This document shows positions 7,186-61,960 of a DNA stretch of 64,000 nt, piece by piece. A program made the position numbers and the translations under genes. This DNA is from Massariosphaeria phaeospora (Eukaryota > Ascomycota > Dothideomycetes > Pleosporales), in NCBI GenBank assembly GCA_011032825.1, contig JAADJZ010000002.1, positions 2,294,001-2,358,000 of the forward strand. The letters are read 5' to 3'. The notes below the pieces were generated by a model. The model was not told where the DNA came from. It did not search any database and saw only the letters and a list, made by a program, of their open reading frames with translations. Position 1 is the first letter of the stretch. Each line of letters starts with the position of its first letter.

Positions 7186-7258
7186 CCGGTCAGTCGGAGA
7201 AAGTTTTCGCAAAGCTCAAACTTGCTGCAGAGAGCCTCATTTGTAGACCGGTCAGTCG
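7186..7258. repeat. 44-bp dispersed module, copy A, between 11-bp direct repeats
   Basis: The direct repeat CCGGTCAGTCG occurs at 7186-7196 and 7248-7258. Between them, 7200-7243 begins AAAGTTTTCGCAAAGCTC and ends GAGAGCCTCATTTG. The same 44 bases with a single A/G difference occur at 49307-49350, flanked there by a different direct repeat. The copy lies about 93-136 bp upstream of the start codon at 7107, so it may be transcribed as leader. No gene-like or RNA-like structure is evident within it. Confidence 0.85.
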
Positions 7259-26800: not shown

Positions 26801-28500
26801 TCAGGATCTCCAACACCTTCGCCGTCGTCGCCGTAGCAGTTCGACACGCACCCATCCCTATTCATGACCATTAAAGTCACAACCGCTTTTCGCCACCCAT
26901 GCCGTCTTCAGCCTCGCTCTCGTTGTCGCCCACCTCCCTTACCTCCTTGATCGTCTTACGGTCGCTATCGTTACCACTAACACAGACCAGCGCCACAGCG
27001 CCGCAGATCCATATACCGATTCTCGTTTCCCTTATTCCGTACGTTAATCGACCCCTATCCTTATCCAGATCCGCATCTGCTTCCCCACCTCATCCCACCA
27101 CCCATAGCAGCACCTCCACCACAAGACCCGTTGCCACTCGCATTGCAGTATTTCTCGCCACCCCCTTTACCCCCACCTTTAGTTATTGCTGCCTCCGACG
27201 CTGTCGTAAATCTGCATCTCCATCCTCATCCAGATGCTTCCATGGTGTTCCAGTTTCCGAGCCGAAATCACTTCCCTACAGTGCCTTCACGAATAATCAC
27301 CAGCGCCGTAGAAAGGCTACCCCACTATACCATGGTCGCCAAGGTCGTCATCCTCGTTATCGTTACTGATACCCACACCTGCAGATTGAGCCCCCATCTT
27401 CATCCACCTCATCCCTTGCCTCTCGCCCTAACGGCAACGCTACCACCGCATTTCAACTGCTATGTCCACCTCAACAACGTCCCCGAAACTCGTCGTTGTT
27501 GCCATTCCCGTTGTTCCGTCTAGATTCAGTTGGCCGTCAGGAATTGATAGCTTAACTAAACGATAAATAGGAATAGAAGGAGAGAGAGAGAAAGAAAGAG
27601 AGAAACAGAGTGAGAAATGAGAGAGAGAAAGTGTGTGAAAATGAGAGAGCAGAAAGAATCGAAGATTTTATTGGGGTCATTTTGCAGATGAACCATGGTT
27701 CCGGTAGATCCATCTTGACGGGACCTAGTTCCAATAGCTCCACAAATCAACCACTCAACACGCTGAAACGTGGCTCGTCCGCAGGAGCACGGAAAACCTT
27801 TCATCACTCGCGCCCTCGCCGCGCCCACTGCAGCACGTTCACTGCTACCTCCCCCCATACACAACCACGGCTGGCCGGCTACTAAAATAGCAGAACACGT
27901 CTCAACCCGCACCACAGCAAGTATGTGTTGAGACAAAAGCAAAACGCACAAAGAAGCGAGAAGAAAATCCAGATTTCTGTCTAGGAACGAATCCCTGGTT
28001 GAGATAGCGACTCGACAAAACATGTCACTTGGCGCACCGCCCACAAATGAAGCCTTTCGCACAAGTCGTAAGAGCCTTCTACGTAATTCACAACGCCACA
28101 GATCCGCCCCCACTATCCTCGTCATCCCCATTCTCATCCAGGCCCACCGCGTCTCCACTATCTATCCCATGCGCCGTCTACCCTTATCCTCATACTGTCA
28201 GATACGTGTCCCATCTCGCGCCCCACCCTCCAATAACAGCCCTTACCAACACAAACTAATCCCAAATACAACATAGTCACTGCTCTCGTTCCCGGCCCCC
28301 TCTTCATCGCCGTCCTCGCCGCCTCTGCCGCCACCGCCAGCCCTAACGGCGCTGGTTCAGTTCCTCACCTCTATTTTTATCTTATTGTCTTGTTCAGCTC
28401 TCCATAAATCTCGTTAGCCTCATCCCACAACAACCCCACAATAACCCCACCACCCCCGACGTCACTCGAATCGAATTATGTCCGACACTGTCACCACCAC
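23900..28500. other. 4.6-kb C-skewed, gene-free tract
   Basis: The plus strand is persistently rich in C and poor in G; for example 26281-26340 has 28 C and 4 G. Frames are short and mostly Pro/Thr/Ser/His artefacts of this composition. Loose motif recurrences are visible, such as ACAAAACTGTAGCCT (25700), ACAGAACCGTAGCCT (25475), CAACACCGTGGCC (25927) and CAACGCCACAGA (26351, 28091). A decayed tandem repeat or repetitive gene is therefore possible. No TIRs, long terminal repeats or transposase remnants seen. Skew reverses near 28500. Confidence 0.6.
27571..27659. repeat. GA-rich purine tract
   Basis: About 90 bp consisting almost only of A and G on the plus strand (GGAGAGAGAGAGAAAGAAAG and so on), interrupting the surrounding C-rich strand bias. 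Low-complexity sequence; a minus-strand frame crossing it reads SLSLLLFLF and is an artefact. Confidence 0.85.
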
Positions 28501-49286: not shown

Positions 49287-49364
49287 TCCTACCTGGGGAA
49301 AAAGAAAAAGTTTTCGCAAAGCTCAAACTTGCTGCGGAGAGCCTCATTTGGATCCTACCTGGGG
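49287..49364. repeat. 44-bp dispersed module, copy B, between 12-bp direct repeats
   Basis: The direct repeat TCCTACCTGGGG occurs at 49287-49298 and 49353-49364. Between them, after an A-rich leader (AAAAAGAA), 49307-49350 repeats the 44 bp of 7200-7243 with one substitution. The flanking repeats differ completely from those of copy A, as expected if each insertion duplicated its own target. Confidence 0.85.
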
Positions 49365-52458: not shown

Positions 52459-52506
52459 CCGAGGATGTGCGCGTAATGCTCGTGTTCGCGTAATGCTCAC
52501 CCCAAC
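52459..52506. repeat. Left 48-bp TIR of Fot-type element 1
   Basis: Complementary to 54525-54572 except one position (GCGCGTAAT here against GCGTGTAAT in the other end read outward). Holds two GCGTAATGCTC motifs in direct orientation, likely transposase-binding sites. Confidence 0.93.
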
Positions 52507-52556
52507 ACAACAACACCGTTTTACCTATAACTTCCACACGCGATATCTCACCCAAT

Positions 52557-54419
52557 ATGGATCCGATCAATGCAGCGATTGAATTTTTAGAATCGCAGCC
52601 ATCGAATGCACGATCCTCGTACACAAAAGTTGCCCTCCACTTTGGTGTATCACGCCACACGCTCGCCCGCCGACATCAAGGCAAATGTGACGCGTATGCC
52701 ACCAAATCAATCAACCAGCGACACCTCAGCCCACAACAAGAGTTAGATCTCATAAGACATATCAGACGGCTGACTGAGGAGGGCTTGCCACCTAGCAGGC
52801 GGATGCTGCGGAATTTATGCGCCTCAATCGCCGGGAAGCCTGCCTCAGAAACTTGGGTGACGCGCTTCCTCGCCCGTCACAAAGATAAGCTGAAATCGCA
52901 TCACGGCAAGGGGAAGGACCGTCTCCGCCACAGGGCAGATTCCCTATACAAATACGAGTGGTGGTTTCGCGATCTCGACAAAATCCTTCGCAAATACCAC
53001 TGCCGACCGTCTGATATATACAATATGGATAAGAAGGGCTTCCACCTTGGTAGAGGTGAAGGTAGCCACAGAGTCTTTAGTAGAGACTCATGGGAGCGAG
53101 GAGGACGTCGTCAACCTATTCAAGATAAGTCAAGGGAGTGGTTGACGGTGATAGCAGCCGTTTGTGCTGATAAGAGCGCGCTGCCACCAAGCGTACTGTA
53201 TAGCTCAACTTCTAGTAACATTCAAGAACGCTGGACGAAGGATATAAAGTACGAGGACGATGAGGTAATGGTAGTCACAACCCAGACGGAATGGAGCAAC
53301 AACGACATAGAGATAGCTTGGCTAAAGAACGTGTTTGATAGGTATACTAAGGACAAGAACTCTCTACGTCACCAATTACTCCTTCTAGATAGCCACTCAT
53401 CCTATTATACACAGAAGTTTATGAACTACTGTCGTCCCCAGAGAATCCTACCTCTGTTGCTACTTTCTTATAGTACTTATACGTTGCAGCCGCTAGATGT
53501 AGGCTTCTTCTCCTCTCTTAGCAGAGCGTATAGCACAGCTTTAGAAAATTACCTAGAGAAAACACAAAGGCTACTATCCCTTAAGAAGAGCAACTTCTAC
53601 TACCTATTCAAGGATGCCTAGGATGCCTCCTTCACTGTCGCCAACGTCCGAAGCTTATTTTCGACTACTAGTATTGCTTCATTTGACGCTAAGCAAGTGC
53701 TTAAAAAGTTCCGCAATACAACGCCAAAGTCTCCTAAGTACCCTACTACGATTGATACGGTTAATAGGGTTTCGATCCGGTTGCTTATGAGTAAGCCTAT
53801 CACCCCTGGTAGCCGTAAGGCTGAGATAGTAAAGGGAACGCTCTTTTCACTACAAGCGCAGCAAGCTATTGTAGAGTACGAAAACAACGGCTTTAGGTTC
53901 GCCTTAGGACGGAAGCAGAGGGACTATGAAACTCCTATTAACGCTCTAGATCTTCAGATGAATAGAGAGGCTCATTGGAGGGCTCAACTTTTATCACCAA
54001 GGACAATCCGCCATGCCACTAATCGGAGGGTACAGAGGGAGGAGGAGGAGGAGGAAAAGCGACTTAAGCGACTTAGGACGAAGGATATGAAGGCTGAGGC
54101 TAAACGTATTCAAGAAGAGCAGGCTCAGATTAGGCGGGTTGAGCGTGAAAGACTCAAGAAGGCGCGGAAGGAGGAGAGGGCTGTAAAGGCGGCCAAGCGC
54201 GATGCTCAAAAACGAGCCAACGACGCCAAAAAATTGCAACAAAAACACCAGGATTGTAATCGCAAGGTATCAAAGCCCCGTACCTGTAAGCCTCAGGTAA
54301 AAGAACGACGCGTAGGTGGTGCTGTTAGGGGTGCTGCTGAGAAGGTGCCTGCACCAGCGCCTCCACCAACCCTCACCCGGCGCGGCCAGGCCGTTAATCT
54401 TCTGGCAAAACTTAGATAG
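52557..54419 (+). pseudogene. Fot-type DDE transposase with one in-frame stop
   Basis: The frame runs 621 codons with a single TAG at 53619-53621 between DA and DA, where TGG (Trp) is expected. Psq-type helix-turn-helix: KVALHFGVSRHTLARRHQG. CENP-B-type DNA-binding domain: LSPQQELDLIRHIRRL to SETWVTRFLARHKDKL. Catalytic aspartates lie in DIYNMDKKGF, LLLLDSHSSYY and STYTLQPLDVGFF. The C-terminus is a basic coiled coil (REEEEEEKRLKRLRTKDMK) ending NLLAKLR. Apart from the one stop, all domains are intact, so loss of function appears recent; readthrough or a clean copy elsewhere could still mobilise it. Confidence 0.9.
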
Positions 54420-54574: not shown

Positions 54575-56316
54575 GCGCACGGGCACTCTAAGCGAGCCGC
54601 GTCACAAATCGAGCTACGAACACCAAAATACCAGACACCACCCCCACTTCAACGTATCACAACTTCACTAATATGGAACCAATTGACGCCGCGCTTGCAG
54701 CAATCAAATCGCGCGAATCAGAAGAACAGTTTTCGTACCGGGAAGTTGCTGATCAGCTTGGTGTAAATCGAACTACACTGTCACGAAGACACCAAGGTCG
54801 TCAAGGGTCGCGAAGCGATGGGGGAACAGCGCGACAAAAGCTTAACGAACACCAGGAAGCCACTCTTGTACAGTATATTGAAGGGCTCTCGAGCAAGGGC
54901 TTGCCTCCTACAAGAGCTATGATAAAAAACTTTGCGTCGCAGGTCGCTGCTCAGCCCGTAAGCGAGTCCTGGGTGAACCGCTTCATCCGCCGAAAGGGTG
55001 ACAATCTCGTCTCAAAATGGTCCTCTGGAATCGATTCTCAACGCCACAACGCCGACAGTAGGGCTAAGTACAAGTTGTACTTTGATCTCCTACATTCAAA
55101 GATGCTTCAGTATCAGATTCAGCCCTATAACACCTACAATATGGACGAAAAAGGCTTTATGGTTGGTGTAACAGCGCGCTCAAAACGGGTCTTCAGTCGA
55201 CGTCAATGGGAGCGCAAGGAGGTAAGGGCAGCGCTGCAGGACGGCTTACGTGAGTGGGTAACACTGCTAGCAACTGTTTGTGCAAATGGGACTGCTCTTC
55301 CTCCTGCTATTATATACCAGTCGGATAACAGCACATTGCAGGCGGCATGGGTGGCTGAAGTCGATACTGAAAAGCACTAATGCTTCGTCTCATTATCACT
55401 ATCTGGATGGACGAACAACGGGCTAGGTTTAGCGTAGCTAGAGCAGGCTTTCGAGCGCTGTACGAAGCAAAAAGCTCGCCTTGGTCGCGACTAGCGTCTC
55501 CTTATACTTGATAGGCATAGCAGCCACCTCACCTTTGACTTTTTAGAGTACTGCGAGTCAAAACGTATACTACTGTGTGTGTTTCCGCCTCATTCGACTT
55601 ATACTTTACAGCCACTCGACGTCGTTTGCTTCAAACCTCTCTCTGGAGCGTATACCTACCAGCTAACGCGTTACCTCCACCGCACCCAAGGCCTTGTACC
55701 TCTCAAGAAAGGCGACTTTTTCTCGCTGTTCTGGGCAGCCTGGAGCTCCTCTATTACTGGAATACTCGTCCTTAAGTCGTTCGAAGCGACTGGTATATGG
55801 CCAAAGGATCCCAACGTTATCCTCAAGCGATTTGACAGCAAGGAGCAGAAGGAGGCAGTAGAAGCTTCACGCCTCACTAGCAGCGACTGGCGTTACACGG
55901 AGCGTCTTTACCGAGCTGCAGTAAGCGATCGTACCGCAGAGGAGTTAAAAAAGCTCTCTAAAACGCTCCATTCACTCGCCGTACAAAACGAGCTACTTCA
56001 CGACGAGAGCGACGGCCTACGAGAGGCCCTTGATAACAAGAAGAAGCGCAAGGAGCGCGGTAAACGTCTTAACTTGCAGCGCGAGGATTCGTACTATGGT
56101 GGTGCTACTTTCTAGTCGCCGCGCAAGATCCGCCAAGCCCGGGCTCATGAGCTTGAAAAGCAACAACAAGAGAAGGCTGAGATAGCTGCAAGACCGTCTC
56201 GAAAGGAGCTTCAGGCTGCTGCCAAGCTCCTCAAGGAGTAGCAGAAGGAGGAGGCCGATAAATTCATGTCAATAATAATAAGCCCCTCTCTTCTCTCAAA
56301 CCTTCGCTATCCATGA
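54575..56316 (+). mobile_element. pogo/Fot-type transposon 2, 3' end missing
   Basis: Starts directly after the TA that ends element 1. The distance from here to its transposase ATG (54673) is 98 bp, the same as in element 1, so 54575 is probably its true left end (GCGCACGGGCACTCTAAGCG...). No complementary right TIR is found downstream. About 150 bp should follow the transposase stop, but the SAT4 gene's stop codon lies only 15 bp away, so the right end is deleted. Confidence 0.7.
54673..56316 (+). pseudogene. Second Fot-type transposase, five in-frame stops
   Basis: One continuous frame ends with a natural TGA at 56314 (SLLSNLRYP), homologous to the end of element 1's protein. Premature stops lie at 55378 (TAA), 55435, 55492, 56113 and 56239 (TAG). 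The first three replace Gln or Trp as judged from the family. Landmarks: KVADQ-type helix-turn-helix (EVADQLGVNRTTLSRRHQGR), CENP-B region (SESWVNRFIRRKGDNLVSKW), TYNMDEKGF, LILD-R-HSSHL and STYTLQPLDVVCF for the three acidic positions. Clearly diverged from element 1 (a different subfamily), so the two are not a recent duplication. Confidence 0.88.
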
Positions 56317-60351: not shown

Positions 60352-61875
60352 TTACGACTTACAGAAGTTGACTTCCGTCGACACCCCCATGGCATATCGT
60401 TCATAGCGCAACTGCTCGTTCCGCAGTTCCGTGTCGTCAACTGCCAAAGCAACATCTCCTGTGATGTAGAGACTGAGTCGCGTATCGAGGTAGAACGGCC
60501 CGTATCCGTCTGCGGCACGACCATTGCCCCTCAGTCCGGGCAGCTGGACGGTGTCGGCGATGGCCGCGCGCCACCATGCTTCCGATGAGGTTTCGCCGGA
60601 AGGATATGTCGCGGCGTCGTAGAGATCGTGGCACTTCCTGTACCATGAGCACGGTGAGGGCTCGCTGGTCTCTGCCCATGTTTCGTAGCTCAAACAGTCT
60701 TGAATGGTGTCGACGATGAAGCCTGAGGCAATCAGCACGTGCGGGTTGTGAGCGTCGAAACTGAGGTGCGGCGTCGACCCGCCATGTGCCTGATGCGTCT
60801 CGGTGTGATGGCTATATGCCCGCTGCGTCTTGGTTTGCAGCGCATAGTTCGGGACCCAGGACGGCGACAGATGAGTCGACGCCGGACCCAGAAAGGAAAC
60901 AAACGCGAGATCGGCAAAGGGGTCCGGACTGTCTTGGTAGAGAATCCGGGCCGTGGACTCATACACGTGTGCAACAGGCGCCGAATAATCCACGGTGATG
61001 GCATCCGCCTCGGCCTCCTCAATCAGTCCCAGAATAGCATAGATCTTGTCCCTCGGGTTCAAGCATTGCAGGCCGAGGCCGACGCGCAGGAGGAAGCCTA
61101 GCCGTTGGGGCGTGTTCTTTGCGAATGACTGGCGGATGTCGCACATGTGGCCGACGTGTGCGCAGCGGCCGTAAATGGGCATGCCGCCGTAGGCGTCGAA
61201 GTTGGAGCAGATGGCTGCGGCGACGGCGCTGATAGCGCTCCAGGAGGCGCTGTATGTGGACCAGTGAATCACCGGGCTGCCGGCTACAACGAGCTCTTGC
61301 AGGATCCACATGCGGGTAAACCACGCGCGCATAAAGAACTCCTCGAGGGCCGGCAGAGTGTCGACATTTCGTGCTGTTTCGCGCGCGATGAAGTCTCGAA
61401 TCGAGGCAACGGGGCCCGTTCTCGTAGAGACAGTTTGGAGGATCTGTTCAACGGCGTTGAAGACGTCGTGTGCAATCTTGTCGAGCAGCAGGCCCGGGCC
61501 TAGCCATATAAGCACGGCTTTGGCGGTAGCATACACCTTCTTCATCAACTTGACCTGCGAGCTGCGTTCCGGGATATTGCCTTGATTGATGCAGATGGCA
61601 TCCGCCCACAGCGTCCGCGGCCGCTCCCGATCGCGATAGGACACCAAAGCGTGGAAGATGTTCTCGCGGACCGGGAACGCTTGCCCGTCAAGAAGGATGT
61701 GATGGGTTAGAGCGTCGGCACCCCACGTGTAGGATATGGCGTCATAGTCCGGATTCTCGCTCAGTCTGGCATGCGCGAGCCGGCAAGACAGCTCGGCGTT
61801 CTCGTCTCCGGGCTCGAGGATCAGCAGCCGGATGCCGTCGTTGTCGGCTATGTCCTGGTATGTGTGAGTGGACAT
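60352..61875 (-). CDS. HET-domain protein, truncated by an in-frame stop
   Basis: Heterokaryon-incompatibility type protein; HET domains in fungi trigger programmed cell death after non-self recognition and act in the cytoplasm. The 507-codon frame starts at 61875. HET domain: DAISYTWG (residues 45-52), LWADAICINQGNIPERSSQV (89-108), VYATAKAVLIWLG, FMRAWFTRMWILQELVVAG and LNPRDKIYAILGLI. The middle contains SWVPNYALQ and a variable region. The frame stops at TAA (60352) where a Gln codon (CAA) would fit, and the conserved C-terminal segment follows in frame (60145-60351). The allele therefore lacks about 68 residues, unless the stop is read through. A TA microsatellite lies 86 bp upstream of the start. 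CDS status versus pseudogene depends on whether the N-terminal domain alone is active. Confidence 0.85.
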   Translation of the reverse strand: MSTHTYQDIADNDGIRLLILEPGDENAELSCRLAHARLSENPDYDAISYTWGADALTHHILLDGQAFPVRENIFHALVSYRDRERPRTLWADAICINQGNIPERSSQVKLMKKVYATAKAVLIWLGPGLLLDKIAHDVFNAVEQILQTVSTRTGPVASIRDFIARETARNVDTLPALEEFFMRAWFTRMWILQELVVAGSPVIHWSTYSASWSAISAVAAAICSNFDAYGGMPIYGRCAHVGHMCDIRQSFAKNTPQRLGFLLRVGLGLQCLNPRDKIYAILGLIEEAEADAITVDYSAPVAHVYESTARILYQDSPDPFADLAFVSFLGPASTHLSPSWVPNYALQTKTQRAYSHHTETHQAHGGSTPHLSFDAHNPHVLIASGFIVDTIQDCLSYETWAETSEPSPCSWYRKCHDLYDAATYPSGETSSEAWWRAAIADTVQLPGLRGNGRAADGYGPFYLDTRLSLYITGDVALAVDDTELRNEQLRYERYAMGVSTEVNFCKS

Positions 61876-61960
61876 GGTGCGGACGGAAGGGGGTCGAGTT
61901 TGAGATGAGATGATGGGAAGGGATACTTGAAGAAGCGACGAGACGAGGCAACACTTGCAC

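What the first reader, a model, noticed from the sequence alone, without database searches (positions are those of the whole stretch)
7186..7258. 44-bp module present twice, each time between its own 11-12 bp direct repeats
Seen in sequence: 7200-7243 and 49307-49350 are identical over 44 bp except one base. Copy A is bracketed by CCGGTCAGTCG twice; copy B (49287-49364) by TCCTACCTGGGG twice. Unrelated flanking direct repeats around a shared core are what an insertion with target duplication produces, yet the insert is only about 51-54 bp, with no TIRs or poly(A) tail. It may be a very small non-autonomous mobile element, a templated filler at break repair, or a new introner-like unit. Both lie in gene-free DNA; copy A is in the leader region of a gene.
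Basis: partly seen in the sequence, partly recalled or inferred. Interest (0 to 1): 0.78.

Follow-up and report, generated by a model that had tools for sequence, protein, structure and literature searches.

The report
Heavily truncated fungal retroposon copies
The two matching 44-letter pieces are very short, 5'-truncated copies of a dispersed copy-and-paste element in the genome of a fungus, each framed by the short duplication that insertion leaves behind; this is a known kind of event, although the copies here are unusually short.

Summary
Window 7200-7243 and 49307-49350 differ at one base, and each insert (51 and 54 bp) sits between its own exact 11- or 12-bp repeat. The core is not confined to two places: a 29-nt core has 121 matches (<=3 mismatches) in the 42-Mb host genome, against 0 for the reversed pattern. 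The host is the fungus Massariosphaeria phaeospora. In the copies analysed, one end is constant (sense-strand 3' end ...GCGAAAACTTTCTC) and the other stops anywhere from 32 to >=223 nt away. Exact repeats >=10 bp flank 15 of 90 copies; 0.0 are expected from swapped flanks. A constant 3' end, variable 5' truncation and a duplication at the truncation point are the signature of target-primed reverse transcription. The pieces are therefore extreme 5'-truncated copies of a longer retroposon, on the minus strand, rather than a self-contained 44-bp element, an introner or repair filler. A third, old, longer copy lies at 27594-27802. No helper LINE with this tail and no Pol III promoter was found, so the parent may be an orphan SINE or a longer RNA. 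What is unusual is the short reach: about 1.6% termination per nucleotide.

The parts
7186..7196 (.). target-site duplication of copy A, first repeat (CCGGTCAGTCG)
7197..7247 (-). copy A: 51-bp insert, retroposon 3' end truncated at the 5' side, sense on the minus strand
   Evidence: core matches 121 genome places
7248..7258 (.). target-site duplication of copy A, second repeat
49287..49298 (.). target-site duplication of copy B, first repeat (TCCTACCTGGGG)
49299..49352 (-). copy B: 54-bp insert, same family, with a longer T-rich 3' end
49353..49364 (.). target-site duplication of copy B, second repeat
27594..27802 (+). old, diverged, longer copy of the same family

Best explanation
Copies A and B are independent, extremely 5'-truncated insertions of a dispersed non-coding non-LTR retroposon family of M. 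phaeospora. Shown: a fixed 3' end, 5' ends anywhere along a body of at least 223 nt, and 10-13 bp target-site duplications at the truncation point in the best-kept copies. Inferred: an RNA ending ...GCGAAAACTTTCTC is recognised by the reverse transcriptase/endonuclease of a LINE acting in trans. The target is nicked, cDNA is primed at the nick from the RNA 3' end, and synthesis stops early (median reach 72 nt, about 1.6% termination per nt). The nascent end is joined, sometimes with a few extra nucleotides, which fixes a short insert between duplicated target bases.
For: 121 core matches vs 0 in the control. Common 3' end and graded 5' truncation in 90 extracted copies, 89 after collapsing one pair. 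Exact flanking repeats >=10 bp in 15 of 90, 0.0 expected; inserts between these repeats measure 32 to 154 bp. A 23-nt 3'-end pattern gives 95 matches, 0 in the control. Extra bases at the 5' junction of both window copies. Copies with repeats >=10 bp have fewer tail mismatches (0.47 vs 1.36), as expected if repeats decay with age. One composite (L077) has an inverted 5' part and a sense 3' part inside one 13-bp repeat, resembling a LINE 5' inversion. Published parallel in fungi: MGL-driven chimeras and Mg-SINE of Magnaporthe with 10-20 bp repeats (PMC2104539).
Against: 74 of 89 copies have no exact repeat >=10 bp beside them. No LINE with this tail was found: the only two loci with a LINE-type endonuclease (C4, C28) have no matching tail in the 1.7 kb fetched downstream of each. 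No excess-stable 3' structure (z +0.85), no tRNA and no credible Rfam match. At a termination rate of 1.6% per nt a LINE of several kb could hardly copy itself, so a separate, more processive use of the enzyme has to be assumed. No empty site in a relative could be examined.
Confidence: 0.88

Rival explanations
1. The mobile RNA is itself a discrete ~50-nt fragment (a processed small RNA) rather than a long RNA copied incompletely; longer copies come from the precursor.
For: 15 of 89 copies reach 48-54 nt (P 0.004 under constant termination; bin chosen after seeing the data) and only 2 of 89 reach under 37 nt (P 0.003). Copies under 60 nt keep repeats >=10 bp more often (11 of 35 vs 4 of 54, p 0.007).
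Against: 5' ends are spread from 32 to >=223 nt with a roughly even fall-off elsewhere; no single sharp 5' end.
Confidence: 0.12
2. The copies are 3' ends of an autonomous LINE whose full-length copies are lost, unassembled or destroyed by repeat-induced mutation, so no separate SINE-like parent exists.
For: Head-bearing loci L120 and L121 share about 75 nt more upstream of the point where the TSD-bounded copy L101 begins, so the parent RNA is longer than the copies. Many RVT_1 matches are riddled with stops.
Against: No Pfam match in five peptides from L120/L121; only two EN-bearing loci in the genome, neither with the tail. RVT_1 candidates were only partly scored (150 of 327).
Confidence: 0.35
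3. Templated filler or capture at double-strand breaks, unrelated to a retroposon.
For: Some copies are composite or inverted (L065, L077); 74 of 89 lack exact repeats >=10 bp.
Against: 121 matches with one shared end; flanking duplications far above the swapped-flank control.
Confidence: 0.03
4. Introner-like element or a DNA-transposon (MITE) family.
For: Short, dispersed, with target-site duplications.
Against: No terminal inverted repeats seen; one end arbitrary; repeats of 10-13 bp against the 3-9 bp reported for introner families (PMC9860276, passage). Splicing was not tested.
Confidence: 0.02

Closest known systems
Mg-SINE / MGL / MINE (WEIRD-MGL chimeras) of Magnaporthe (PMC2104539; abstract and first part of the Results section read)
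   Same: fungal non-LTR-driven insertions, 5'-truncated 3' parts, 10-20 bp target-site duplications, composite insertions
   Different: there the LINE partner MGL is known and shares its 3' end with Mg-SINE; here no partner was found and no sequence relation was tested
AfuSINE families of Aspergillus fumigatus (PMC5063351; listing and passages seen)
   Same: short non-coding fungal retroposons (140-493 bp) with 4-14 bp target-site duplications
   Different: those have tRNA or 5S heads with Pol III promoter boxes and low copy number; no such head was found here
5'-truncated LINE-1-type insertions made by target-primed reverse transcription (recalled)
   Same: fixed 3' end, graded 5' truncation, target-site duplications, occasional 5' inversion
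   Different: no poly(A); median reach 72 nt; autonomous parent unknown
Introner-like elements (PMC4457414 listing and two passages; PMC9860276 listing and passages)
   Same: short dispersed insertions; some introner families have 3-9 bp duplications
   Different: introners are introns within genes; these have arbitrary 5' ends and longer duplications

Membership tests
Target-primed (non-LTR) retroposon insertions | constant 3' end with variable 5' truncation | tested here: met
   90 extracted copies, reach 32 to >=223 nt; 95 matches of the 3' end, 0 in the control
Target-primed (non-LTR) retroposon insertions | target-site duplications of variable length at the truncation point | tested here: met
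   15 of 90 exact >=10 bp vs 0.0 expected; 30 of 90 >=7 bp vs 2.93
Target-primed (non-LTR) retroposon insertions | a source reverse transcriptase/endonuclease sharing the 3' end | tested here: inconclusive
   two EN-bearing loci, neither with the tail in the 1.7 kb fetched; RVT_1 candidates only partly scored, 150 of 327
SINE | short non-coding element without its own reverse transcriptase | tested here: inconclusive
   no Pfam match in five peptides from L120/L121, but the 5' end of the parent was not reached
SINE | Pol III promoter or tRNA/5S/7SL head | tested here: not met
   no tRNA in 8 loci; no Rfam match at E<=1 for L063 and only a 14.8-bit match (gathering score 65) for L101; boxes A and B were looked for by eye only
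SINE | 3' end shared with a partner LINE | tested here: inconclusive
   no partner found; search incomplete
MITE / DNA transposon | terminal inverted repeats and fixed-length TSD | tested here: not met
   one end arbitrary; exact repeats of 10-13 bp
Introner-like element | spliceable intron with conserved ends inside genes | not tested
   no transcript data; arbitrary 5' ends argue against

The most novel reading that the evidence does not exclude
An orphan retroposon family whose reverse transcription terminates so early (about 1.6% per nucleotide, with hardly any copies below 37 nt and an excess at 48-54 nt) that its typical product is a ~50-bp insert with a perfect target-site duplication: a class of ultra-short TPRT insertions that seeds micro-insertions near genes and is easily mistaken for independent mini-elements.
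Probability: 0.3. Interest if true: 0.55.

Novelty: new member of a known kind. Interest (0 to 1): 0.38.

Why it matters
It shows that apparently isolated ~50-bp insertions with direct repeats in fungal DNA can be the far tail of retroposon truncation, which length-filtered repeat annotation could easily miss. The graded set of copies is a natural read-out of where reverse transcription stops along one template, and copy A shows such an insert landing just upstream of a gene.

Tried and rejected
A self-contained 44-bp element was rejected because the 5' boundary varies between copies. MITE, break-repair filler and introner are rejected or unsupported as given under rivals. tRNA head: ARAGORN found none in 8 loci. 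Rfam: nothing at E<=1 for L063; for L101 and L120 a single 14.8-bit SCARNA7 match that rests largely on a TG run. 3' stem-loop: no excess stability (z +0.85), nor for the 223-nt draft (z +0.63). LINE partner at C4 or C28: best local alignments to the draft score 23.5 and 22.5 on the wrong strand and do not cover the 3' tail; 50 shuffles of L112 reach 22.0. A suspected further copy just downstream of copy B was not supported: 5 of 300 shuffles scored as well. L078's 268-nt upstream stretch is single copy, so its distant 10-bp repeat may be chance or mark a chimera. Plasmid collection, for the L120 head: no match. Pfam on five peptides of L120/L121: no match at E<=5. Papers: the searches (open-licence library only) listed nothing that I recognised as this family; they were by words, not by sequence.

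Full report
Observation. In the window the first 21 nt of the element match twice with up to 3 mismatches, where shuffles give 0.01. The host is Massariosphaeria phaeospora (Pleosporales): the window's 620-aa ORF matches BDV95DRAFT_614799 at 100%, and the contig length given there, 2,441,825, equals that of contig C12.

Genome-wide. A 29-nt core has 54 + 67 = 121 matches with up to 3 mismatches and none for the reversed pattern; the list itself is capped. 90 copies were extracted; 89 remained after one pair with the same 3' flank was collapsed: 44 of the AAGTTT type, 21 AAATTC, 24 other.

Anatomy. Read on the strand opposite to the window, the copies share the 3' end ...GAGCTTTGCGAAAACTTTCTC(TG), and their 5' ends fall anywhere along a body of at least 223 nt (ends come from local alignment and may be off by a few nt). 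Median reach is 72 nt, 35 of 89 are under 60 nt, and three reach the end of the 223-nt draft. Exact repeats >=10 bp lie at or near the element ends in 15 of 90 copies, against 0.0 when flanks are swapped among copies; one of the 15 (L021) has two alternative repeats. Inserts between these repeats measure 32 to 154 bp. Allowing the upstream repeat to lie further away (89 copies) gives 7 matches >=13 bp against 0.10 expected, including L065 and L077, where pieces in opposite orientation lie inside one repeat pair. L077 has an inverted 5' part followed by a sense 3' part. That resembles the 5' inversions of LINE insertions, though by eye the two parts overlap by roughly 80 nt, so two events or a fold-back are not excluded.

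Mechanism. A fixed 3' end, graded 5' loss and duplicated target are what target-primed reverse transcription produces. The termination rate fitted to 89 copies is 0.0159 per nt, a mean of 63 nt past nt 30. Binned rates mostly lie between 0.009 and 0.022 per nt beyond 37 nt, with 0.027 at 51-58 (13 of 68 at risk) and 0.003 below 37 (2 of 89). The 48-54 nt range holds 15 of 89, P 0.004 under constant termination; the range was chosen after seeing the data. Both window copies end there. The scarcity of very short copies is not only an effect of the 29-nt probe: a 23-nt 3' probe gives 95 matches, of which by eye seven were not in the core lists; of the six of these fetched, two are longer copies and four are short or odd. 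Copies with repeats >=10 bp are the least diverged (0.47 vs 1.36 mismatches in the 29-nt tail). Against this reading, 74 of 89 copies lack an exact repeat >=10 bp, and an enzyme with this termination rate could hardly copy a LINE of several kb.

Parent. The 99-nt 5' part gives 30 matches in 28 scored candidates. L101, with a 10-bp repeat 110 nt upstream (0.37 such matches >=10 bp expected among 89 copies), carries a further head. The head recurs at C48:968469, there joined almost directly to the 3' tail (L120), and at C12:1141703 (L121); shuffles do not reach these similarities (0 of 500 each). L120 and L121 share about 75 nt more upstream (score 29.5, best of 1000 shuffles 17.0), so the parent is longer than the TSD-bounded copies seen. 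Five peptides from there match no Pfam family. The genome has many RVT_1 matches with stops (150 scored of 327 candidates) but only two loci with a LINE-type endonuclease, and neither carries the tail in the 1.7 kb fetched. Helper and promoter are therefore unknown. I call it a SINE-like retroposon, not a SINE.

Position. Copy A with its repeats lies 79 to 151 nt upstream of the ATG of BDV95DRAFT_614799. Copy B lies over 450 bp upstream of the next long ORF on the + strand. Whether either affects expression is untested. A third, old copy at 27594-27802 was found with the draft family sequence.

Known parallels. In Magnaporthe, LINE-driven MINE and Mg-SINE insertions have 5'-truncated parts and 10-20 bp repeats (PMC2104539). 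A. fumigatus SINEs have 4-14 bp repeats and Pol III heads (PMC5063351, passages). Cochliobolus heterostrophus, another member of the Pleosporales (order recalled), has 101 LINE superfamily I copies (PMC4112212, passages), so a lost or unassembled helper is plausible. The word searches listed no paper that I recognised as describing this family.

Verdict. This is a real insertion family of a known kind, a new unnamed member with an unusually short typical product.

Noticed in passing
   Followed up: partly
window 52494-54419 and 54592-55380: Open frames with DDE_1 and Tc5-type HTH domains (first frame) and a Tc5-type HTH domain (second frame): pogo/Fot1-like transposase genes or remnants (name recalled).
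   Followed up: no
window 60352-61959: HET-domain (heterokaryon incompatibility) protein gene.
   Followed up: no
L120 and L121 (C48:968020-968640, C12:1141380-1141880): By eye, antisense frames of the two head loci give similar peptides (TIALIQ.V.Q.EDP.MSLL), so the head may come from antisense of a gene; no Pfam match, no statistical test.
   Followed up: partly
L100 (C12:604251-604837): Two copies 98 bp apart with the same 3' flank and the same local 7-bp repeat, looking like a tandem duplication of a whole insertion.
   Followed up: no
89 copies, genome-wide: Copies under 60 nt keep repeats >=10 bp more often than longer ones (11 of 35 vs 4 of 54, p 0.007), although mean tail divergence is about the same (1.23 vs 1.20); unexplained.
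   Followed up: partly
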